DNA of 44,407 bases from Methanobacteriota archaeon (GCA_013288705.1 JABDBI010000014.1:1-44407), one strand, 5' to 3'; shown: positions 21,305 through 35,686, counted from the stretch's first letter. The notes: generated from the letters alone by a model not told the origin. Program-made: numbers and translations.

Positions 21305-22291
21305 TCAGGTATAAAACAAAATCAGAAAAGCGCCTGCAATGAGTCCAACCACTGTGATCACCGCCAAACCAATAAGCGCGACGTCGGTGGCGGCCATCTT
21401 TGTTTTGGTCGGGAGTTGTGTTTGATAGGGTTCGTTCGGTATTTTGTCCAGTTTATCCGGCGCGGTTGACTTATGTTCTGCAGGTGGTGTTTGTGCCGGT
21501 CTAGCTTCAGGTTTGGCGGGCGGTGGTGGAGCAATACTGCGATTGGCAAATGCGGGAACGTTGCTAAGCCTCTGCACCATGCTTGCATCCGGATCAATAA
21601 AGGTTAACCGAATTGCGCCAAGCGAAATCTCGTCTTTGTCTTTTAGTGCTGTTCGCGCTTCGATGCGCTCACCATTGACAACCACACCATTCTTACTGCC
21701 CATGTCCTCAAGAAAAATTTCACCCCACTCCTGCTGAATGCGCGCATGGCGACGGGAAATATTGACATCATCCAGCTGCAAATCGCATTTGTCACTGCGA
21801 CCAATGACCAGCTCGCTCACACTTTGCCCGAGCTCGACTTTTTTCCCTTCTTGTGGCCCATTCATGACTCTCAGGTAGGGAATGTCATCGCCAGATGCGA
21901 GCTCACTCAAAGCCTCTTGCATCATTTTCTTTGCAACAACAGAAGTCTGCTCATCTGGAAAGTCGCTCTGGCTCGCTTCATCTGACAAATCGACGGTGAT
22001 CTGATAATGCACAATCTGGAGAACATCTTGATTCTTGAGCACACGCTTGCCCCCTGAAAGAAGAGGCTCGCCATTGTATAACGTGCCATGCGTGGAGCGC
22101 AGATCTTGTACAAACCACTCCTTGTCCTCTCGCAAAATGACTGCATGGTGACGACTAATGGTACTAAGTGGCAGTTGGACGTCATTGTTTTTATCACGGC
22201 CAAGGGTGATTTTCGGCTGATCAAATGACAAATCAAAATCACGCGACGCCTCGTCGGGTACTTCAAGATGGACGTGAAGCTTGATTTGCAT
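21305..22291 (-). CDS. Tail-anchored protein with two FHA domains
   Basis: This 328-aa protein has two forkhead-associated domains that bind phosphothreonine peptides. FHA1 (about 25-90) has ITLGRDKNNDVQL, TISRHHAVI and RSTHGTLYNG. FHA2 (about 155-220) has LVIGRSDKCDLQL, NISRRHARI and GSKNGVVVNG. The key Arg, Ser and Asn residues are intact in both. A Pro/Ala-rich linker follows (240-300), and one membrane helix at the extreme C-terminus (VALIGLAVITVVGLIAGAFL). It is therefore tail-anchored with the FHA domains in the cytoplasm. No Ser/Thr kinase gene is in the window. It starts 9 bp after the TPR lipoprotein gene, at the end of a four-gene run. Confidence 0.9.
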   Translation of the reverse strand: MQIKLHVHLEVPDEASRDFDLSFDQPKITLGRDKNNDVQLPLSTISRHHAVILREDKEWFVQDLRSTHGTLYNGEPLLSGGKRVLKNQDVLQIVHYQITVDLSDEASQSDFPDEQTSVVAKKMMQEALSELASGDDIPYLRVMNGPQEGKKVELGQSVSELVIGRSDKCDLQLDDVNISRRHARIQQEWGEIFLEDMGSKNGVVVNGERIEARTALKDKDEISLGAIRLTFIDPDASMVQRLSNVPAFANRSIAPPPPAKPEARPAQTPPAEHKSTAPDKLDKIPNEPYQTQLPTKTKMAATDVALIGLAVITVVGLIAGAFLILFYT

Positions 22292-26346: not shown

Positions 26347-27177
26347 TTACCACAACGGACGAATAAGTGAAGTGTAGGCTAGAGTCCATGGTACGATCAC
26401 CAAAAGTGCATCAACGCGATCGAGAAATCCCCCATGCCCGGGGATCATGTGGCCAGAATCCTTGACATGATAAGCTCTCTTGATGCGGCTCTCAAACAGA
26501 TCCCCAAGGGGGCTTAGCACGATTGCCGGAAGCGCAATCCATAAAATGTCTCGCGTTTGTAGGTCTTGCAAAAACGGAATCTGAAATAGAGAAAAAACGT
26601 AGCTAAGAACAAAGGGCATCAGCACGGTTGCGATGGCTCCTCCAGCAAAACCTTCCCAGGTTTTCTTTTGGCTCACTGCAGCAAATAGCTGATGTCTACC
26701 AAACGTTCGACCGGCAAAATAAGCAAAAGTGTCATTTGACGCTGTCACCGTAATTGCTAAAAAAATGAACGATAGCCCGCCATCTGGGTATTTGCGCAAA
26801 AGAAAAATAGAGACAACACCTATACCGATGTAAGAGCACCCAAATAAAAGCATGGACATTTTTTCAAGCACGGCGGCATTGAGGCTTGGATGAAAAGTAA
26901 AGTAGGCCAAGAGCCCAAGGGTTAGGAGTGCGTAAAGCAGCAGAATTGTTGAAGCTTGCGGTGCGAGCATGCATAGCAGGCAGAAGATCACGCTGAGGGG
27001 TGCAAATATAATACGCAGCTTCGCCTGCTCTGGTGCAACCATGTGACCAAATTCAAGAAAGGAGAAGATTGCAACCACCAACACAAGCGCCAGCGTCGTC
27101 CATTGGCTTAAAACCAGTGCAGCAATGGTAACCGGCAGCAACACGAGGCTGCTCAAAATGCGCAGTCCTAGATTCAT
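26347..27177 (-). CDS. cdsA: Phosphatidate cytidylyltransferase
   Basis: This 276-aa polytopic membrane enzyme makes CDP-diacylglycerol from phosphatidic acid and CTP. About seven or eight membrane helices are visible. The C-terminal CdsA signature is clear: SPLGDLFESRIKRAYHVKD followed by PGHGGFLDRVDALL. An earlier conserved stretch is DTFAYFAGRTFGRHQL and KKTWEGFAGG. The ATG overlaps the uppS stop as ATGA, so translation is coupled. The uppS-cdsA pair is a standard bacterial envelope module. The unusual part is what lies upstream, two SctL-like genes. Confidence 0.96.
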   Translation of the reverse strand: MNLGLRILSSLVLLPVTIAALVLSQWTTLALVLVVAIFSFLEFGHMVAPEQAKLRIIFAPLSVIFCLLCMLAPQASTILLLYALLTLGLLAYFTFHPSLNAAVLEKMSMLLFGCSYIGIGVVSIFLLRKYPDGGLSFIFLAITVTASNDTFAYFAGRTFGRHQLFAAVSQKKTWEGFAGGAIATVLMPFVLSYVFSLFQIPFLQDLQTRDILWIALPAIVLSPLGDLFESRIKRAYHVKDSGHMIPGHGGFLDRVDALLVIVPWTLAYTSLIRPLW

Positions 27178-27890
27178 GTCTTAAGTTGCTCCGATGTTTT
27201 ACCAAAGCGCCTTTCGCGGCCGGCGAAATCGGCGAGTGCGATGTCTATATCCGCACGTGAAAATGCCGGCCACAATACCGGAGTAAAGTGGAGCTCCGCA
27301 TAGGATAGTTGCCAAAGCAGGAAGTTTGACAAGCGCTTCACTCCCGAGGTTCGAATAAAAAGATCTGGATCAGGTAAATCTGAGGTGTCCAGATGACGTT
27401 CCAATAATGCTTCGTCAATGTCTTCTGGTTTCAACAGACCATCTTTCAGCTTGGTGCAGATCGCTTTGGTTGCTCGGGCGAGCTCATCTCTGGCGCCGTA
27501 GGAAAGGGCAAGCGTGAGGCGCAAGCGATTTCCGTTGGCTGTTTTTTGACAGACTTGTTGAAGCGCCTTCTGAATTTGATTGGGCAATTGGTGTACGGCA
27601 CCAATCGTTCCAACACGAACACCTTTTGCAATTAACTCGTCACATTCCTTTTTTAGATAATTTTCCAGAATTCTCATAAGGCCAGAAACTTCGTCTTTGG
27701 GCCTTTGCCAATTTTCGGACGAAAATGCGTAGAGCGTTAAAAATGGAATGTGCAATTCGCCACAATATCTGACGATTTCTTGTGCAGCCTGAGCGCCCGC
27801 ACGATGACCCTCAAGGCGAGTTAGCCGTTGTTGTTTTGCCCAACGTCCATTTCCATCCATAATGATGGCAAGGTGTTTTGGTAAAGTCAC
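27174..27890 (-). CDS. uppS: Undecaprenyl diphosphate synthase
   Basis: This 238-aa cis-prenyltransferase makes undecaprenyl diphosphate, the lipid carrier for cell-wall building blocks. Its signature blocks are HLAIIMDGNGRWAKQ with the catalytic Asp, EGHRAG, LYAFSSENWQRP, RTSGVKRLSNFLLWQLSYAE and FTPVLWPAF. The start is taken as the GTG at 27890, because it places the catalytic block about 11 residues in, as in the family. That GTG overlaps the upstream sctL2 stop as GTGA. A longer reading from 27935 would overlap sctL2 extensively. The gene is coupled downstream to cdsA by ATGA. Confidence 0.96.
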   Translation of the reverse strand: MTLPKHLAIIMDGNGRWAKQQRLTRLEGHRAGAQAAQEIVRYCGELHIPFLTLYAFSSENWQRPKDEVSGLMRILENYLKKECDELIAKGVRVGTIGAVHQLPNQIQKALQQVCQKTANGNRLRLTLALSYGARDELARATKAICTKLKDGLLKPEDIDEALLERHLDTSDLPDPDLFIRTSGVKRLSNFLLWQLSYAELHFTPVLWPAFSRADIDIALADFAGRERRFGKTSEQLKT

Positions 27891-28531
27891 GCAAGGACCT
27901 TCGTGAGACTCTTGATTGCATCCGCTTCTTCGCAAAGAGCACTACCTACATCTGTGACTACACGAATGAACCCAGGTTTGACATCTGCAACTTCTTCAAT
28001 TTTGAAATCCGGGAGTGCGGTAATCTTGCCAAACAAACTTTGCTCATTTTGTGAGAATTTGTCCTTCTGCTCTTTGCACATTTGCAGCCGCAGGCAACGC
28101 CTTGCTCGCAATTGCTTGATGCCTTCTTTCAAAACATCATCAATTTGATTTGGGGGTAGCTTTTGGATCGTACCCAGAATTTTTTGTACGATTTCAAGGG
28201 CGATGACCCGAATATCAGCGGCAGCATCTTCATATACCTTTGCTCGGCGCTGAAAAATCGCAATTGCTTCGTTTGCGGCTTTCGCGAACGCTTCAGCCGC
28301 TGCTTTTGACATTGTCTCTTCTTGAACAAGAGCCGCTTGGCGCTTTCCCTCGATCAAGCGGGCTTTTCGGTCTTGCTCCCCTTTTGCGCGAATTTCTTGC
28401 GCCGTCTTTTGCGCTTGGTAAATCTCTCCTTCGATCACGCGGGCGCCGGAAAAACGAGGTGCTGTCGCTGGTGCGGCGGGAGTGGATGGCTGGGAATCGC
28501 CTTTTTGGCTTTTAATCACCCGCGTTGTCAT
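27887..28531 (-). CDS. SctL/FliH-like T3SS stator paralogue 2
   Basis: This 214-aa protein has a Pro/Ala-rich N-terminus, then a long charged coiled coil (about 35-100, rich in Ala, Lys, Glu and Gln). The C-terminal domain has the SctL/FliH layout, with VIALEIVQKILG, then a strand-rich part and VKPGFIRVVTDVGSALCEE, where the family usually has a Gly-containing strand followed by SxxGxxDA. FliH/SctL proteins form peripheral stalks that link the export ATPase to the cytoplasmic ring. The gene overlaps sctL1 upstream as ATGA and uppS downstream as GTGA. No ATPase gene (sctN/fliI) is adjacent. A V-type ATPase E-like stalk is the main alternative, because the two families share the fold. Confidence 0.65.
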   Translation of the reverse strand: MTTRVIKSQKGDSQPSTPAAPATAPRFSGARVIEGEIYQAQKTAQEIRAKGEQDRKARLIEGKRQAALVQEETMSKAAAEAFAKAANEAIAIFQRRAKVYEDAAADIRVIALEIVQKILGTIQKLPPNQIDDVLKEGIKQLRARRCLRLQMCKEQKDKFSQNEQSLFGKITALPDFKIEEVADVKPGFIRVVTDVGSALCEEADAIKSLTKVLA

Positions 28532-29106
28532 TTAAGCTCCGCGCCGCTTAGGCCTTGCAAGGCACGCGCTATTTCTTCGAGTTGGGTGGTCAGCTGGGCA
28601 TCGATGACGCCTGATTCTGTCTGGATGAGTACGCCACCCTTTTCGACCAGTCTGTCTTCCTGAATTTCTAAATCGCTTGCGCGACCCAGCGCACCTATCA
28701 ATTCTGCTTTGCTGGCTTTGAGCGTCGCTGCGTCTTGTGGATGAGCCCTCAAACGGATCTCGGAGGCCTCGCTGGTGGCCGAAAGCGCAGCTTTGGCCAC
28801 CAGGACAATGGTATCTTTGGCAGCCGCCATTTCAGCGTTCAAAAGTTGCTTGGCGACTTCTAAGGCCGTATGAATTATCTCAGCTTCTTTGTCTTTCATC
28901 AGAGTCTCTTCAAGCGTGCCGAGCTTTTCTTGCAGCTGTTCTGCCTTGCTAGAGCCCAGTTTTTGACCCGCTTCTTGCGCAGCCTTTGCCAAGGCCTCCA
29001 CTTCATCGTCAACTGCGCGCAGCCAACCAGCAACCTCTTTTTCTGTCTCTTCTATAAGAGCCTGCGCACGGGAATTGCTGGATGTTTTTCCTTGCTGAGA
29101 TTCCAT
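28528..29106 (-). CDS. sctL: SctL/FliH-like T3SS stator paralogue 1
   Basis: This 192-aa protein is counted from the ATG at 29106. It has an acidic, Gln/Glu-rich coiled-coil N-terminus (EETEKEVAGWLRAVDDEVEA) and the C-terminal SctL/FliH globular domain. The latter ends with IRLRAHPQDAATLKA, DLEIQEDRLVEKGGVLIQT and ESGVIDAQLTTQLEEIARAL. The GGVLIQTESGVIDAQL core is the classic stator signature and closer to consensus than in the next gene. An in-frame ATG at 29160 would overlap the LppC-like gene by 32 bp. The shorter form is preferred because it starts 22 bp after that stop, with GGAG upstream. It is coupled to the second paralogue by an ATGA overlap. Confidence 0.8.
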   Translation of the reverse strand: MESQQGKTSSNSRAQALIEETEKEVAGWLRAVDDEVEALAKAAQEAGQKLGSSKAEQLQEKLGTLEETLMKDKEAEIIHTALEVAKQLLNAEMAAAKDTIVLVAKAALSATSEASEIRLRAHPQDAATLKASKAELIGALGRASDLEIQEDRLVEKGGVLIQTESGVIDAQLTTQLEEIARALQGLSGAELK

Positions 29107-29128: not shown

Positions 29129-30466
29129 TTAATATACACGAATAGGCTTGATGTTGCCATCCTCGAACATGAACAAGTGTGGCGGAGTCAGCGAGTCCCC
29201 ATCTTTGTCGAAAGAAATAGGGCCGCTGATTCCTTGAAAGCCTTGTGTTTCTGCCAATTGATCCCGAAAGCTGGTTCGAGAAAATTTGCCTTTCTTTGCC
29301 TGCACCATGCTTTTCACAAGCATTGCAATGTCGAAGCATTGGGCCTCCATGAGCGTTGGTTCTGCATGTTGGGCCGCGTCAAAGTTCGTCCGAAATTGTG
29401 TTGTGACCGGATCTGATGCACTGAAATCAACGCCACCTGCGAAAAAAGCACCGTCCATTTGGCTACCCAGACGCTCTCCCAGCAAATTGCTGTGCCAGCT
29501 ACTTGGACCCAGCAAGTAAATGGGCTCTGCGCCAAACCATCCCGTTGTCCTGCGATAGATATTGCCAATGCGCTGATCGTGGGAAACCAGAATATTCGCG
29601 GCAACCAGAGCCGGAATGATGTAGCTTACGGTTTTAGGAAAATCGGGAATCAGAAGACCTTCAAAGGGCACGTTTGGCAGGGCAGATTTACCGAGAAGCC
29701 TTTTGGCGTGTTCTGTAAATGTTGTTTCATTGCTTTCGTAAGATTCAAGCGAAGTGACAGTACCGCCTTGCTGTTTCACCTCTTCGACAAAAGCATGCAT
29801 CATCTCCATTCCGGGGCGGTGTTTGGGATAAAGAACGCCGAATCGTTTCAGGCTCAAATCGCGCATTGCGTGTTGTACGAGCACGCGCGCCTGTTTTTGG
29901 GGGGTGAGGCCAAAGTGGAAGGAATAAGGGCCTGTTTCTGCGATGCCTGGGCTTCTCGCAAAAGAAATGTTGGGAATTTGCAGAGCTTCTGCTTTACGTG
30001 CCACCGCAAGGCCGGTATCGCTGAGGATGTCGCCAAGCATGGCGAGCACGTGATATTTTGTGGCCAGGAGATCGACGAGCTGGATGGCGAGTTCTGCTTT
30101 GCCCTGTGAATCGCCTATGATCAGCGAGAGCGTATCGCCTTGCTGCACAGTGATGGGGGCCGGGTCCGGGGTAATGGTTGGCAAGCCAAACCCAATCTGC
30201 AGGGCGGCAAGCGCGCGTAAGCCATAATTTTTATACGGGCCCGAGAGAGGCAAGATAATTCCAATGCTCTTTGCTGCCAGCGGAATGTTGTCAGTGGTAG
30301 GCGTAATCAGCGCAGCCGGCGGGGGCGATGGTTGAGATTGCTGAGCTTGAACTTGCGTAGGGGCGGCAGCTGGCGTCGCCGTTTGACTTTTAGGGGGCAA
30401 GGTGGCACAGGCTGTCGCGAGCGCCAAACAATAAAAAATTGCAATGTATGTACGTATTGCAGTCAT
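29129..30466 (-). CDS. LppC-like penicillin-binding protein activator / type 1 periplasmic-binding-fold lipoprotein
   Basis: This 445-aa lipoprotein has signal MTAIRTYIAIFYCLALATAC with the lipidated Cys at about residue 20, then a Pro/Gln/Ala-rich linker of about 50 residues. A type 1 periplasmic-binding fold follows (SIGIILPLSGPYKNYG, LIIGDSQGKAELAIQLV, FGVLYPKHRPGMEMMHAFVEE, FEGLLIPDFPKTVSYIIPAL). This is the LpoA/LppC C-domain layout, in which the protein activates a peptidoglycan synthase from the outer membrane, though some homologues bind amino acids. The longer reading to 30652 overlaps fmt and is rejected. It is divergent from fmt over 33 bp, and sctL1 follows 22 bp later on the same strand. 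Confidence 0.82.
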   Translation of the reverse strand: MTAIRTYIAIFYCLALATACATLPPKSQTATPAAAPTQVQAQQSQPSPPPAALITPTTDNIPLAAKSIGIILPLSGPYKNYGLRALAALQIGFGLPTITPDPAPITVQQGDTLSLIIGDSQGKAELAIQLVDLLATKYHVLAMLGDILSDTGLAVARKAEALQIPNISFARSPGIAETGPYSFHFGLTPQKQARVLVQHAMRDLSLKRFGVLYPKHRPGMEMMHAFVEEVKQQGGTVTSLESYESNETTFTEHAKRLLGKSALPNVPFEGLLIPDFPKTVSYIIPALVAANILVSHDQRIGNIYRRTTGWFGAEPIYLLGPSSWHSNLLGERLGSQMDGAFFAGGVDFSASDPVTTQFRTNFDAAQHAEPTLMEAQCFDIAMLVKSMVQAKKGKFSRTSFRDQLAETQGFQGISGPISFDKDGDSLTPPHLFMFEDGNIKPIRVY

Positions 30467-30499
30467 GTCATTGTTTTCGCACAACACGCGTGAGCTGTC

Positions 30500-31480
30500 A
30501 TGACATCTTCTAAGAAAACTCGTATCGCCTTTTTTGGGACCCCGGAATTTGCCGTGCCAGTCTTCCAGGGTTTGTTGAACTATTGCGCACAACATGACTG
30601 CACACTTGCGTTTGTAGTTTGTCAGCCTGATCGACCAAAAGGTAGAGGGCAAAGAGAATCTGCGCCTGCAGTTAAGGTTTTAGCTGAGCAATATCACGTA
30701 ACTGCCTTGCAGCCAAAGAGCTTAAAGGTTGGTGCCGACGACGGAGATGCGTTGCGTGACGCGTTTCGACAAGAGCCAATCGACTTAGCAGTTGTGGTTG
30801 CCTACGGCCGCATCATCCCAGCAGATTTGTTGAGAATGTCGCGATGTGGTTTTGTAAATGTGCATGCGTCGCTGTTACCGCGCTGGCGCGGCGCAGCGCC
30901 CATACAGCGGGCTTTGGAGGCAGGTGACGCTAAAACTGGCGTATCTATCATGGATCTCGTGCCTGAGCTCGATGCTGGCGATGTTTATCTCACGCGGGAA
31001 ATTGGGATTGCTGAGTCTGACGATGCGATGTCCCTTGCAAAGAAGCTCTCTGCGTTAGGCACAAGCGCGCTGATCGACTGTTTGCCAAGAATATTAGATG
31101 GGACTTTGGAAAAAAGCGCCCAGCCAATCGATGGAATTACCTATGCAAAGATGCTGTCCAAGGAAGAAGGCGAAGTAGACTTTGCACAAAGTGCGCGTAC
31201 GATTGTCAATCGTTATCGTGGGTTTCAGCCATGGCCTGGGCTTTTTACGTCGCATAACGGCCGTACAATTCGTCTCTTTGCTGTGCGACAGAGCCGCGAT
31301 GATACGCCAAAAAGCGCCCCAGGGACTATTGTAAGGGTGGACGATTTTTTAGTCGTTCAGACAGGAGATGGCTGCGTTCAGATCGGAGAATTGCAGCTCG
31401 AGGGTAAAAAGCGGCTTCCAGTTGCGGCGTTTTTAAACGGATATCCGCTTATTGTCGGCGAGCATATTGGAAAAATTTGA
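30500..31480 (+). CDS. fmt: Methionyl-tRNA formyltransferase
   Basis: This 326-aa enzyme transfers formyl from 10-formyl-THF to initiator Met-tRNA. Signatures are IAFFGTPEFAVPVF, VCQPDRPKGRGQ, VVVAYGRIIP, NVHASLLPRWRGAAPIQRA (active-site Asn-His block) and MDLVPELDAGDVYL. The C-terminal tRNA-binding domain ends with RYRGFQPWPGLF and IGELQLEGKKRLP. All expected catalytic residues are visible. No def (peptide deformylase) gene is adjacent, although fmt and def are usually neighbours. Instead the orphan DNA methyltransferase gene follows 44 bp later. Confidence 0.97.
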   Translation: MTSSKKTRIAFFGTPEFAVPVFQGLLNYCAQHDCTLAFVVCQPDRPKGRGQRESAPAVKVLAEQYHVTALQPKSLKVGADDGDALRDAFRQEPIDLAVVVAYGRIIPADLLRMSRCGFVNVHASLLPRWRGAAPIQRALEAGDAKTGVSIMDLVPELDAGDVYLTREIGIAESDDAMSLAKKLSALGTSALIDCLPRILDGTLEKSAQPIDGITYAKMLSKEEGEVDFAQSARTIVNRYRGFQPWPGLFTSHNGRTIRLFAVRQSRDDTPKSAPGTIVRVDDFLVVQTGDGCVQIGELQLEGKKRLPVAAFLNGYPLIVGEHIGKI

Positions 31481-32421: not shown

Positions 32422-33675
32422 CGTCAGCAGCCATATCTCTCCGTAATGATGCAGATTGCTCGCAAGCTTTTTCGCTTGTGCGCCTGTGCCCATGTATAAA
32501 TCGATGTGCCCAGGGCCCTTGATCGCAGAGCCGGTATCCTGCGCAAAGAGAAGCCTCCAATCGTGATGATCCACTTTGCCTGCGCTGTCGAGCACAGGCA
32601 CCCGCGCGAGCAGTACGCTGCCATACGGAATAATTGTGGGATCAACAGCCACCGAGTGTTGAGCCACAAGGGGCATTCCGGAAGCACCCATGGGTTTTTG
32701 ACCTTTGGGTGTGAAAAACACATAGGATGGGTTTTGTAGGAGGTAGTGATCCAGCAGGCTCGGGTTGCAATCGAACCAATCCTGAATAGCCTCGAGGGAA
32801 ACCTCTGCCGGTGTGAGATGGCCATCTTCGACCAAGAGCCTGCCAATACTTACATAAGGATGGCCGTTTTTGCCAGCATAAGCCAGAATGCGGGATGAGC
32901 CATCTTCAAAGACGGCTAGCCCAGAGCCTTGTACTTGCATGAAAAAAATATCGAGTGGATGGTTGGTGAAGGCGATTTCCAGGCCACGCCCCCTTAAAGC
33001 ACCGTCTTGTTCAATTTCTTTACGCGACAAAAAAGGGACGCCCTGTTTCAACTCCGCAGGCTTGCGATAGAGCGGGAATCGGTAATGCGCGTCTGCTTTC
33101 TTCCGCACGTGAATAATCGGCGTGAAGTACCCGGTAAATTGCACATTTCCTTTCTTGTCTGCTCCTGAGAGTCGGTATGCAGTCAGTCCTTTGGGTAGAG
33201 CAATTTCGTCGGTGTGGCTAAAGTTTCTTTGCAAGGTTTTTGCCGCCGCGCGAAGTTTCGCGTGGCTTTTCTCATTGCGCAAATAGTGTTGTTGCAACTT
33301 AAGCCCAATTTTCGCTTCCTTGGGCAAATGCAGCTTGAGCGAGGGGAGGTCTTCTTTGGTCCAAAGGGCAGCGAGTAATTTTCTGTTGAGGCTGCGGCCA
33401 TCTCCGGAAAAGCGGTAGAAGGACGGCGGCAAATCTTCGTAGACATAAAACGCGCAATCGATCTGGCCATCATCCATTTGGGTGCAGAATGGGTATTGGG
33501 ATGCAAACGCACCGGTCGCAAAACTATCGCAAGCAATGAGGGATTGCGTACTAGACATGACGTTGCAGGCATTTCGCCTATGTTTGATTTTTGGCGAAGA
33601 ACAGCCAGCACATAAATTCCATAATAGGAAAGCAAAGTAAAGAAGGAGAATTCGATCTAAGTAAGTGGAGCGCAT
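32401..33675 (-). CDS. mltA: MltA-type membrane-bound lytic transglycosylase
   Basis: This 424-aa lipoprotein has lipobox LCAGC (Cys at about residue 24). It cleaves peptidoglycan glycan strands to 1,6-anhydro ends. The MltA domain shows FTGYFTPIIHVRK, the GSGLAVFEDGSS block, AYAGKNGHPYVSIG and FFTPKGQKPMGASG. The C-terminal 3D domain shows LLFAQDTGSAIKG and GHIDLYMGTGAQAKKLA, which includes the catalytic Asp of the family. The order and length fit MltA. The start lies 19 bp inside the end of the FliG-like gene in another frame, so it is probably translationally coupled to it. A peptidoglycan-opening role for a trans-envelope machine is plausible by context. Confidence 0.93.
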   Translation of the reverse strand: MRSTYLDRILLLYFAFLLWNLCAGCSSPKIKHRRNACNVMSSTQSLIACDSFATGAFASQYPFCTQMDDGQIDCAFYVYEDLPPSFYRFSGDGRSLNRKLLAALWTKEDLPSLKLHLPKEAKIGLKLQQHYLRNEKSHAKLRAAAKTLQRNFSHTDEIALPKGLTAYRLSGADKKGNVQFTGYFTPIIHVRKKADAHYRFPLYRKPAELKQGVPFLSRKEIEQDGALRGRGLEIAFTNHPLDIFFMQVQGSGLAVFEDGSSRILAYAGKNGHPYVSIGRLLVEDGHLTPAEVSLEAIQDWFDCNPSLLDHYLLQNPSYVFFTPKGQKPMGASGMPLVAQHSVAVDPTIIPYGSVLLARVPVLDSAGKVDHHDWRLLFAQDTGSAIKGPGHIDLYMGTGAQAKKLASNLHHYGEIWLLTSEHRGK

Positions 33676-34652
33676 TGTGCGAAACGCTTATCGATTTTTC
33701 CTTGCTTTGACAACTGTAACGTTACCTCAATAGCACGTTGCTGCAGCTCGCTGGGGCGCTGCAGTATAAGTGATTGTTCTTTTGTCAATTGCCCGACGTG
33801 ACTGAGTAATTTCTCACCCGTTGGCATCACAAGTCGCTGGGCTATCTGACGAGACAAAAGTGACTCGTTCTCCGAAAGCGCACAAGCCAAGAAATATAAC
33901 CCTGCTTTTTGGTAAAGATCTTCAACATCACGAAATTCTGCACATACGGATCGTAGAAATGGCAAAATGGCGGGCTGGTTGAGTTTACGCACAACTGAAA
34001 TAGTGCGGATATCGTTAATGATCGCGTCTCGGACGGAGGCGGGAAGATGCTTGAGAAAGTTTGCCGTTTTGCGAATACCAAACTCAGCAAACGCATGAGC
34101 CAATTGTTCTAAGCCTGCGGTGCGAAAGAAGATGGCAAACTCATCACCAGTGAGCAGCGCAATATGTTGAAAGTCGAATTTGGATTTCGGTTCTTCATAA
34201 GGCATTGGTGCAAATTTAGACTCAAAGCACTTCAAGACAAGCGACGAAGTCTCTTTTGACATCACCGGCTTCGGAGGCAGCGTTTGTGACAGAACATCCG
34301 AGTTCTGCTCGAGAATCTTTTTGCGAAGAGTTTCTGGGAATGCACTCAAGACCAAATGCCGGATGAACAACGGTTCAGCAGCAAGCCCCGTCAAAAGCCA
34401 TGTCGGATCAATGGAAAATAAACGGGTTGGTGCCTGGTGCCTGAGAAGACGCTTGAGCTCAGCAACCAGGAGTGGAATGCGCCTCTTTCTATCAATTTCA
34501 AGCAGGGGTTGAATGACTTTATCCAGGTGGTAAGCTTCTTCTTGTGGCAAATGCACAAAGAGCTCTTTGTGCTGGCGACTACCAAACATAGCTAAGGCGA
34601 TGAGCAATCCTTGCTGCTCATTTGTGGTGGAGTCAAATTGTGGCGTTACCAA
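33657..34652 (-). CDS. FliG-like / SctK-position protein
   Basis: This 331-aa, wholly cytoplasmic, all-helical protein has no signal. Length and repeated right-handed helical modules resemble flagellar FliG (about 335 aa). The N-terminal part has KELFVHLPQEEAYHLDKVIQ, the middle FDFQHIALLTGDEFAIFFRT, and the third module ANFLKHLPASVRDAIINDI, followed by a helical end with IEVTLQLSKQGKIDK, reminiscent of FliG's terminal helix. Identity is low and no EHPQR or GGXGPXG loop is visible. The gene position next to sctJ is that of sctK in some T3SS operons. The start is TTG at 34652, 11 bp after the sctJ stop with a GAGGG site. It overlaps mltA by 19 bp. I would check it by structure prediction. Confidence 0.5.
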   Translation of the reverse strand: MVTPQFDSTTNEQQGLLIALAMFGSRQHKELFVHLPQEEAYHLDKVIQPLLEIDRKRRIPLLVAELKRLLRHQAPTRLFSIDPTWLLTGLAAEPLFIRHLVLSAFPETLRKKILEQNSDVLSQTLPPKPVMSKETSSLVLKCFESKFAPMPYEEPKSKFDFQHIALLTGDEFAIFFRTAGLEQLAHAFAEFGIRKTANFLKHLPASVRDAIINDIRTISVVRKLNQPAILPFLRSVCAEFRDVEDLYQKAGLYFLACALSENESLLSRQIAQRLVMPTGEKLLSHVGQLTKEQSLILQRPSELQQRAIEVTLQLSKQGKIDKRFAQCAPLT

Positions 34653-34663
34653 GTTGGCCCTCG

Positions 34664-35686
34664 CTAGCCGATCTGTGTGCCTTCATTCTGTTTAAGATCT
34701 TCTGCATCTCTCTGAGGTGGAGGTGTTTGAGTCGGTGAAGGTGGCAATGACATATTTGCTGCGCTCTCTGCTGCCACCAGTTTTGCTTTAAGCGAAAACG
34801 ATCGCCTGAGACCGAATATCCCAAGCGCAACACCCAAAACTGCGAGGCAGGCGAAAAGCCAAAGCAACGGCCCCACGTCGCTGGATTTCGATTTTTGAAG
34901 CGGCATTGTTGCGCGTGCAGGATGTTGGGAAGGGGGCATTGGTTCCATTGGGCCGGTGCTAGGCGTAGGAGGCGCGCTTATCGGAGTTGCCGCCGCCGGC
35001 GCAGTTGTCGTTGCTACTCCCGTGCCACCGCCTTTGGACCCGTTGGCTAGACGCATGGGAACATTGGCGGCCAATACGACGGTCACACTGGCTGGTGACA
35101 AATCCTCAACTGCAGAAGCTACCAAGTACTTGACGTCGTCAGCCGTCATGGAAGCATGTCCCTTATTATCGATTGGATTGTACACAATGGCTACCGATGC
35201 AGTCGCCTTAGGAGGAGCAGCATTAATGTCACGGATCGCGTTGGTATCAGGGAAAACAATCGCAACCCGTGCCTGAACAACACCAGGCAGAATCCTCAGC
35301 ATATTCTCAATTTCGCCTTGCATGGCCATCAGAAATTTTGCTTTTTCTTCATTTTGCGAGGGGATGATGTTCGACGAGCCCGGCGGATAAACCTGCGCTA
35401 GCCCAAGACTTGCTTGCCTCGGTAGCTTATTGTCGACCAAAATGCGCATGGCGCGCACTGCATCGGCAGCTTTAGCCGAGATGGTGTATGTGACAGTTCG
35501 GCCTGGAACAGAGGTTTTAATTGCCGCAATTTTTTGCGACTGCAACACCACCATGATTTCGTTTGCATCCGGTTCCGACAGATTGGCCACCAGATTTTCA
35601 TCAGCGGCACATGCAAACATGCCAAGAACAAGGCTGACCAGTATAAGAATGCGCGCGAGTTGTGTCATGGTGGACATATTAACCAT
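34664..35686 (-). CDS. sctJ: T3SS inner-membrane ring lipoprotein SctJ
   Basis: This 340-aa protein of the SctJ/YscJ/PrgK/FliF family forms the inner ring of a type III secretion basal body. A lipoprotein-like signal ends at MFAC (Cys near residue 26), then ENLVANLSEPDANEIMVVLQ, matching the opening of SctJ proteins. Two ring modules follow. The second contains ENMLRILPGVVQARVAIVFP and TADDVKYLVASAVEDL. A Pro-rich linker leads to a C-terminal membrane helix (LLWLFACLAVLGVALGIFGL, about 280-299) and a short cytoplasmic tail. FliF would be larger, with two membrane helices, so this is the non-flagellar type. Three ATGs compete as start. It begins 50 bp after tsf, in the same direction, and leads into the FliG-like gene. 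Confidence 0.9.
   Translation of the reverse strand: MVNMSTMTQLARILILVSLVLGMFACAADENLVANLSEPDANEIMVVLQSQKIAAIKTSVPGRTVTYTISAKAADAVRAMRILVDNKLPRQASLGLAQVYPPGSSNIIPSQNEEKAKFLMAMQGEIENMLRILPGVVQARVAIVFPDTNAIRDINAAPPKATASVAIVYNPIDNKGHASMTADDVKYLVASAVEDLSPASVTVVLAANVPMRLANGSKGGGTGVATTTAPAAATPISAPPTPSTGPMEPMPPSQHPARATMPLQKSKSSDVGPLLWLFACLAVLGVALGIFGLRRSFSLKAKLVAAESAANMSLPPSPTQTPPPQRDAEDLKQNEGTQIG

What the first reader, a model, noticed from the sequence alone, without database searches (positions are those of the whole stretch)
27174..29106. Tandem SctL/FliH-like stator paralogues locked to uppS-cdsA
Two adjacent genes both read as T3SS/flagellar stator proteins (coiled coil, then the GGxxxxTExGxxDAQL-type core in the first and a divergent form in the second). 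They overlap each other by ATGA, and the second overlaps uppS by GTGA, which overlaps cdsA by ATGA. T3SS stators normally form homodimers next to their ATPase gene sctN. A duplicated pair without an ATPase, coupled to lipid-carrier and phospholipid synthesis, suggests a heterodimeric stalk or a stator given a new envelope role.
Basis: partly seen in the sequence, partly recalled or inferred. Interest (0 to 1): 0.72.

Follow-up and report, generated by a model that had tools for sequence, protein, structure and literature searches.

The report
Split type III secretion stator pair
Two neighbouring genes are duplicated copies of the strut (SctL/FliH) that ties a type III secretion motor to its ATPase; in one branch of Myxococcota each copy has lost the end that the other keeps, so they most likely work only as an unequal pair.

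Summary
L1 (28528-29106, -) is a clear SctL/FliH. L2 (27887-28531, -) is a diverged one. The ATGA/GTGA/ATGA overlaps are exact.

Two parts of the interpretation fail. 'No ATPase' reflects dispersed genes in a 74%-complete MAG: the genome has sctJ, sctK, sctQ, sctR, sctS, sctT and sctV, and close relatives have SctN elsewhere. 'A new envelope role' has no support beyond gene neighbourhood, and three sister genomes keep the pair away from uppS.

The heterodimer idea gains strong indirect support. Most other sampled Myxococcota with this system have one SctL carrying both an N-terminal KVIK motif and a C-terminal TExGxxDAQxxTQ motif. Here one duplication gave two clades (L1 100/98, L2 99/99). The C-motif is in 14/14 L1 and 0/13 L2. 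The N-motif is in 2/14 L1 and 13/13 L2. In a related family, an L2-like domain is fused to the N-terminus of the SctN ATPase, downstream of an L1-type SctL. Both models match FliH or V-ATPase subunit E. FliH homodimers bind FliI asymmetrically (literature), so this looks like that asymmetry fixed in two genes.

Physical L1-L2 pairing is inferred, not shown. Verdict: new variant of a known kind.

The parts
28528..29106 (-). L1: SctL/FliH stator paralogue that keeps the C-terminal (ATPase-side) domain and motif GGVLIQTESGVIDAQLTTQ and lacks the canonical N-terminal module; ATG 29106 (alternative starts GTG ~29139, ATG 29160)
   Evidence: PF02108 1.4e-18, NF004968 2.4e-18; canonical SctL profile positions 39-213 of 216; model matches V-ATPase E and FliH 5B0O at 2-5e-5
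27887..28531 (-). L2: diverged SctL paralogue that keeps the N-terminal motif (MTTRVIK..ARVIEGEIYQA) and coiled coil; C-terminal domain present but without the conserved motif
   Evidence: TIGR02499 2.6e-6; canonical SctL profile positions 2-196, E 2.1e-24; model's five best PDB matches are all FliH of 5B0O, E 4e-3 to 1.5e-2
28528..28531 (-). ATGA overlap of L1 stop and L2 start
   Evidence: sequence
27174..27890 (-). uppS, GTG start at 27890 overlapping the L2 stop (GTGA)
   Evidence: PF01255 2.4e-81; sequence
26347..27177 (-). cdsA, ATGA overlap with uppS
   Evidence: PF01148 1.2e-57; sequence
29129..30652 (-). Peripla_BP_6 lipoprotein (LpoA/LppC-like, weak), upstream neighbour conserved with the pair; true start probably internal
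   Evidence: PF13458 9.4e-30, PF04348 0.049; homologue precedes L1 in G006, G010, G008, G012
34664..35686 (-). sctJ inner-ring lipoprotein of the same T3SS
   Evidence: PF01514 1.2e-18; TIGR02544 1.6e-37
33657..34652 (-). sctK-like (FliG_C-like, weak); in G016 and G038 its homologue sits between sctJ and sctL
   Evidence: PF01706 0.16 (not significant); homologues 1e-29 and 8e-9 between sctJ and sctL
21305..22291 (-). two FHA domains plus a C-terminal transmembrane helix; SctD-like candidate, membership not established
   Evidence: PF00498 6.9e-42, PF16697 2.1e-31; TIGR02500 4e-6, below cut-off

Best explanation
L1 and L2 are the two unequal halves of the peripheral stalk (stator, 'spoke') of a non-flagellar type III secretion system, probably of the secretin-less 'Myxo'/T3SS* kind. 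An ancestral homodimeric SctL was duplicated once, and the copies lost complementary ends. L2 keeps the N-terminal module that by FliH/SctL precedent docks on the SctQ (FliN-like) pod or export gate. L1 keeps the C-terminal domain and motif that by FliH-FliI precedent grips the N-terminus of the ATPase SctN. Joined through their coiled coils as an L1-L2 heterodimer, they tie each SctN subunit to the sorting platform. In FliH2-FliI one homodimer already uses its two C-terminal domains in different conformations at two different sites, so a heterodimer would build that asymmetry into the genes. Shown: homology, single duplication, complementary motif loss, joint retention, L2-like domain fused to SctN in a related family. 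Inferred: physical heterodimer, which end binds which partner. The uppS-cdsA linkage is treated as co-transcription inherited in the order, not as function.
For: Both proteins are SctL/FliH. Against a profile of 14 single-copy SctL, L1 of the order align from position 27 or later (12 of 13 from 39 or later; the sister-family G032 L1 from 1), whereas L2 align from position 1-2 (three at 17-19) and stop at or before 205 of 216. C-motif segment: 1.97 bits per column in canonical, 1.54 in L1, -0.62 in L2; N-motif segment: 1.47, -0.78 and 1.03. Motif counts: C-motif 14/14 canonical, 14/14 L1, 0/13 L2; N-motif 13/14, 2/14, 13/13. The tree gives L1 one clade (100/98) and L2 one clade (99/99). Within the order both copies are present in 12 of 16 genomes, neither in 3, L1 alone in 1 fragmented MAG. 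In G038 and G031 the SctN ATPase carries an extra N-terminal domain that matches the L2 profile (1.5e-9, 1.1e-5; hhalign 95.2%) and not the L1 profile, while their SctL falls inside the L1 clade (99/99). The host genome has sctQ, R, S, T, sctV and sctJ; relatives have SctN. Literature: the FliH dimer binds FliI asymmetrically and its N-terminus binds FliN (PMC9114704); a SctL dimer links SctQ to SctN (PMC10769875).
Against: L2 still folds a C-terminal domain in the model, so it may keep some ATPase contact. The N-terminal loss in L1 depends partly on start-codon calls (G000 L1 could start at a GTG giving '(M)YIKRW'; G006 has MVSYIK; G009 and G032 keep a VIK). L2 is fast-evolving; with the f14 rows added, L2_G012 falls outside the L2 group on a long branch. 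G005 (99% complete) keeps SctN, SctJ, SctV and SctQ without either stator, so the pair is dispensable there or the system is decaying. SctN itself was not found in the window's genome.
Confidence: 0.7

Rival explanations
1. Two separate homodimeric stators with different clients or stages: L1 homodimers hold SctN, and L2 homodimers make another contact (for example cytosolic shuttling, effector-chaperone docking, or spacing pods).
For: In G011 and G014 the two genes lie at unlinked loci. L2 has long C-terminal tails outside family f1. SctL and SctQ are known to shuttle in the cytosol (PMC10769875).
Against: An L1 homodimer would mostly lack the N-terminal docking motif and an L2 homodimer the C-terminal ATPase motif. 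Two half-functional homodimers are less likely than one complementary pair. The L2-like fusion to SctN places L2 at the ATPase.
Confidence: 0.18
2. L2 is no longer a stator but a regulator or adaptor of SctN that descends from SctL (an SctN N-terminal chaperone or inhibitor, later fused to SctN in family f14).
For: Very fast evolution of L2 (end branches of 1.5-2.5 in several rows); loss of the C-motif; fusion to SctN in f14.
Against: L2 keeps the N-terminal docking motif in 13/13 species, the coiled coil, and a FliH/E-type fold in the model.
Confidence: 0.09
3. One reading: the stators have been recruited to couple lipid-carrier and phospholipid synthesis (uppS-cdsA) to a new envelope machine.
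For: L1-L2-uppS-cdsA order in G000, G006, G010 and G013, uppS beside the pair in G009, cdsA only in G008 and G012.
Against: G002, G004 and G007 keep the pair with other neighbours, and G011 and G014 keep both genes unlinked. sctJ, sctK, sctQ-T and sctV occur in the same genome and SctN in sister genomes, so the ordinary T3SS role is available. No domain or motif points to lipids.
Confidence: 0.02
4. Relic of a decaying T3SS: L2 is a degenerating duplicate without function.
For: Absent with L1 in G005; gene dispersal; reduced genomes in the family.
Against: L2 is an intact ORF in 13 species of six families, is a strongly supported clade (99/99), and keeps specific conserved positions (M1, I6, K7, G120, R144 invariant in 10).
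Confidence: 0.01

Closest known systems
SctL/FliH homodimeric stator of T3SS and flagella (FliH2-FliI1, PDB 5B0O)
   Same: Coiled coil plus E/delta-like C-terminal domain; N-terminal docking end; place in the ATPase complex of a T3SS; L1 passes the Pfam FliH cut-off
   Different: Two co-inherited paralogues with complementary loss of the two functional ends, instead of one gene giving a homodimer
Secretin-less 'Myxo' NF-T3SS / needleless T3SS* of Myxococcus xanthus (PMC3459982, PMC12075869)
   Same: Same phylum; same SctJ, SctK, SctL, SctN, SctQ, SctR-V parts; other Myxococcota have single-copy SctL of the canonical kind
   Different: Genes scattered over several contigs rather than one cluster; SctL duplicated; SctQ split into two ORFs in the window's genome; secretin and needle status not tested here
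E-G heterodimeric peripheral stalk of A/V-type ATPases; b-b' of some F-type ATP synthases (own knowledge)
   Same: Unequal two-chain stalk between rotary-type ATPase and platform; fold match of the L1 model to V-ATPase E
   Different: Here both chains are SctL paralogues that keep a C-terminal domain; arose independently inside a T3SS
FliN/FliY paralogues of the Campylobacter jejuni C-ring (PMC6946799)
   Same: Paralogous duplication in a T3SS-type machine turning a homo-oligomer into an obligate hetero-oligomer with division of binding roles
   Different: Concerns the C-ring, not the ATPase stator; in flagella

Membership tests
SctL/FliH stator family | Profile match to FliH/SctL models | tested here: met
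   L1 1.4e-18, above the Pfam cut-off; L2 sub-threshold in public models (2.6e-6) but 2.1e-24 with a myxobacterial SctL profile
SctL/FliH stator family | Long N-terminal helix followed by E/delta-like C-terminal alpha/beta domain | tested here: met
   Both models show this order of elements; best PDB matches FliH 5B0O and V-ATPase E; pLDDT only 65-69
SctL/FliH stator family | C-terminal motif (T-E-x-G-x-x-D-A-x4-Q) | tested here: inconclusive
   Met by L1 (14/14), not met by L2 (0/13); L2 is a member by descent, not by this motif
SctL/FliH stator family | Forms a homodimer that bridges SctQ and SctN | not testable with these tools
   No multimer prediction or binding data
Non-flagellar T3SS (Myxo/T3SS* type) | Export gate and ATPase: SctR, S, T, V, N | tested here: inconclusive
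   Gate met: SctR above the TIGR01102 cut-off, SctS at the TIGR01403 cut-off, SctT by position and length at G000:C1; SctV fragment G000:C30. SctN found in relatives, not in G000
Non-flagellar T3SS (Myxo/T3SS* type) | Lipoprotein SctJ rather than FliF | tested here: met
   TIGR02544 1.6e-37 vs TIGR00206 fliF 2.9e-9; lipobox-like GMFAC; flagellated relatives carry a separate FliF
Non-flagellar T3SS (Myxo/T3SS* type) | No secretin, no needle SctF | not tested
   Genome incomplete; no search made
V/A-type ATPase E subunit | Belongs to a V/A-ATPase with A and B subunits | tested here: not met
   The genome shows F-type AtpA and AtpD only; L1 is fold-similar but a FliH by sequence

The most novel reading that the evidence does not exclude
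In one clade of Myxococcota the type III secretion stator has become an obligate heterodimer by duplication and complementary loss of the SctQ-docking and SctN-gripping ends, and in one family (f14) the second half was then fused to the ATPase itself. Each pod would be tied to SctN by one fixed, asymmetric L1-L2 spoke.
Probability: 0.6. Interest if true: 0.68.

Novelty: new variant of a known kind. Interest (0 to 1): 0.55.

Why it matters
FliH and SctL are known as homodimers whose two C-terminal domains bind the ATPase in two different ways. Why two, and which chain does what, is hard to ask genetically when both come from one gene. A natural split into two genes with complementary ends lets each role be removed separately, and the L2-SctN fusion shows which half can be built into the ATPase. 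It also gives a second route, parallel to E-G in V-ATPases, by which a rotary-type ATPase gains an unequal stalk.

Tried and rejected
HrpE PF06188 in the own genome: no match, uninformative. PDB sequence search: L2 gives nothing relevant, L1 only 5B0O at 0.0017. Idea that the genome lacks an ATPase: rejected because sister genomes have SctN and the MAG is 74% complete. Idea that L2 is an unrelated coiled coil: rejected. Idea that other phylum members have hidden L2 genes: in most of them the L1 and L2 profiles hit the same single gene; the exceptions are G032 and the f14 fusion. Check for a clean deletion of the pair in G005 through its G007 neighbour gene: that gene has no homologue in G005, so no empty site could be shown. 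Co-variation of a short L2 C-domain (G002, G004, G007) with lack of a ~20-residue SctN N-terminal extension fits an L2-SctN contact but is one evolutionary event, so it is not counted. Papers on duplicated FliH/SctL: none found in 5 searches of the open library, which is not proof of absence.

Full report
1. Observation. and one search confirm both ORFs and the three four-base overlaps exactly as described. L1 (28528-29106, minus) is a FliH/SctL protein by Pfam (PF02108 1.4e-18) and NCBIfam (NF004968 2.4e-18). L2 (27887-28531, minus) is below public cut-offs (TIGR02499 2.6e-6) but clearly the same family with better profiles: 2.1e-24 against 14 single-copy SctL from other Myxococcota and 97.3% probability in a profile-profile comparison with L1. 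uppS and cdsA are as named.

2. Surroundings. In relatives G016 and G038 the homologues of sctJ, sctK and sctL are adjacent in that order. Elsewhere the host genome has a block at G000:C1 107603-111099 with sctQ split over two ORFs, a FliO-sized protein, sctR, sctS and an sctT-sized protein, and an SctV piece cut by a contig end. It is a Myxococcota MAG of 1.63 Mb in 51 contigs, 74% complete. No SctN-type ATPase was found in it, only AtpA and AtpD, but G002, G004, G005, G006, G007 and G008 have SctN/FliI-type ATPases away from the stators, and G010 has one besides its flagellar ATPase; those of G007 and G010:C31 score best as SctN. So the 'missing ATPase' is most likely a matter of dispersed genes and an incomplete assembly.

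3. Conservation of the pair. In the 16 genomes held for this order, L2 is found in 12, always together with L1. Three lack both (two are 0.3-0.5 Mb genomes without any T3SS gene found; the third, G005, is 99% complete and keeps SctN, SctJ, SctV and SctQ), and one fragmented MAG shows L1 only. The order lipoprotein-L1-L2-uppS-cdsA is kept in full in the window's family and in f4 (G010); G013 (f5) has L1-L2-uppS-cdsA, G009 (f3) L1-L2-uppS, and G008 and G012 (f2) at most cdsA. Three members of the window's own family keep the pair with other neighbours, and in G011 and G014 L1 and L2 are on separate loci. The linkage to uppS-cdsA is therefore old but not required.

4. Complementary loss. Most other sampled Myxococcota with this system have one SctL: the L1 and L2 profiles hit the same gene. 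That canonical SctL begins M(A)xKVIK, has a second box VI..EVYEA before the coiled coil, and ends with GGCxIxTExGTxDAQLxTQ. Scored segment by segment against the canonical profile, the N-motif averages 1.47 bits per column in canonical SctL, -0.78 in L1 and 1.03 in L2; the C-motif averages 1.97, 1.54 and -0.62. By pattern, the C-motif is in 14/14 canonical, 14/14 L1 and 0/13 L2; the N-motif is in 13/14, 2/14 and 13/13. The two L1 that still carry the N-motif are G009 and G032; G032 is from another family outside the order and looks like an earlier stage. Start-codon choice blurs the N-end of some L1 (G000, G006), so N-terminal loss is less certain than C-motif loss.

5. One duplication and a fusion. 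A maximum-likelihood tree gives one L1 clade (100/98) and one L2 clade (99/99) including G032. In family f14 (G038, G031) the SctL gene falls inside the L1 clade (99/99). The next gene in G038, SctN, has an extra N-terminal domain of about 160-175 residues; the same fused ORF, cut by a contig end, is present in G031. That domain matches the L2 profile (1.5e-9 and 1.1e-5; hhalign 95.2%) and not the L1 profile, and it groups with L2 in the tree, on a long branch and with weak support for the deepest split (79/87; L2_G012 then drops out of the group). The simplest history is one duplication at the base of a clade (the order, f19, f14), with L2 later fused to the ATPase in f14.

6. Structure. Single-chain models are of modest confidence (L2 pLDDT 65, L1 69). 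L2's five best PDB matches are all FliH chains of the FliH-FliI complex 5B0O (E 4e-3 to 1.5e-2, none below 1e-3). L1 matches V-ATPase subunit E and FliH at 2-5e-5. So L2 probably keeps a FliH-like C-terminal domain even though its motif is gone.

7. Mechanism. From the literature, the FliH dimer is the peripheral stalk; its N-terminus binds FliN and FlhA, and its two C-terminal domains bind FliI in completely different conformations at two sites (PMC9114704). A SctL dimer links SctQ to SctN (PMC10769875). The most likely reading here is an L1-L2 heterodimer in which L2 supplies the docking end and L1 the main ATPase grip, with L2's altered C-domain perhaps at the second site. Steps shown: family, duplication, complementary motif loss, joint retention, L2-SctN fusion. 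Steps inferred: heterodimer and the assignment of ends.

8. System. The parts fit the secretin-less 'Myxo' NF-T3SS (PMC3459982), which in Myxococcus xanthus is the needleless T3SS* that works with the Kil pilus in prey lysis (PMC12075869). Absence of secretin and needle was not tested here, and a predatory role for this organism is only a possibility.

9. Verdict. Observation confirmed; interpretation partly supported; new variant of a known kind; interest 0.55.

Noticed in passing
G038:C36 (L054:6080-7921, -) and G031:C593 (L241:5409-7175, -): SctN ATPase with an extra N-terminal stator-like (L2-like) domain, seen in two species of one genus; a natural stator-ATPase fusion.
   Followed up: yes
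G000:C1:107603-108898 (L240:5604-6899, +): SctQ is split into two adjacent ORFs (314 aa FliM-like and 113 aa FliN/SctQ-C-like) in the window's genome; paired hits with short C-terminal ORFs also in G002, G004, G005, G007, whereas other families of the order mostly have one long ORF.
   Followed up: partly
G001 (0.3 Mb, 87% complete) and G003 (0.5 Mb, 91% complete), same family as the window: Very small genomes in the same Myxococcota family, with no FliH, SctJ, SctV or SpoA match; possible extreme genome reduction.
   Followed up: no
G005 (99% complete): Keeps SctN, SctJ, SctV and SctQ but no L1 or L2 was found; a T3SS apparently without a stator, or one decaying.
   Followed up: partly
G016:C114 (L056): sctJ-sctK-sctL-sctN cluster in a genome estimated 100% complete, in which no SctV/FlhA (PF00771) match was found; possible T3SS-like sorting platform without the export gate.
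   Followed up: no
SctN N-termini, G006, G008, G009, G010, G011, G013, G014 versus G002, G004, G005, G007: SctN has a ~20-residue N-terminal extension (LEENL...LPxGKVI or similar) in genomes with a full-length L2 C-domain and lacks it in the subgroup where L2 has a ~10-residue gap (or L2 is absent).
   Followed up: partly
window 21305-22291, -: Protein with two FHA domains and a C-terminal transmembrane helix, with homologues near the pair in G006 and G010; possible SctD substitute.
   Followed up: partly
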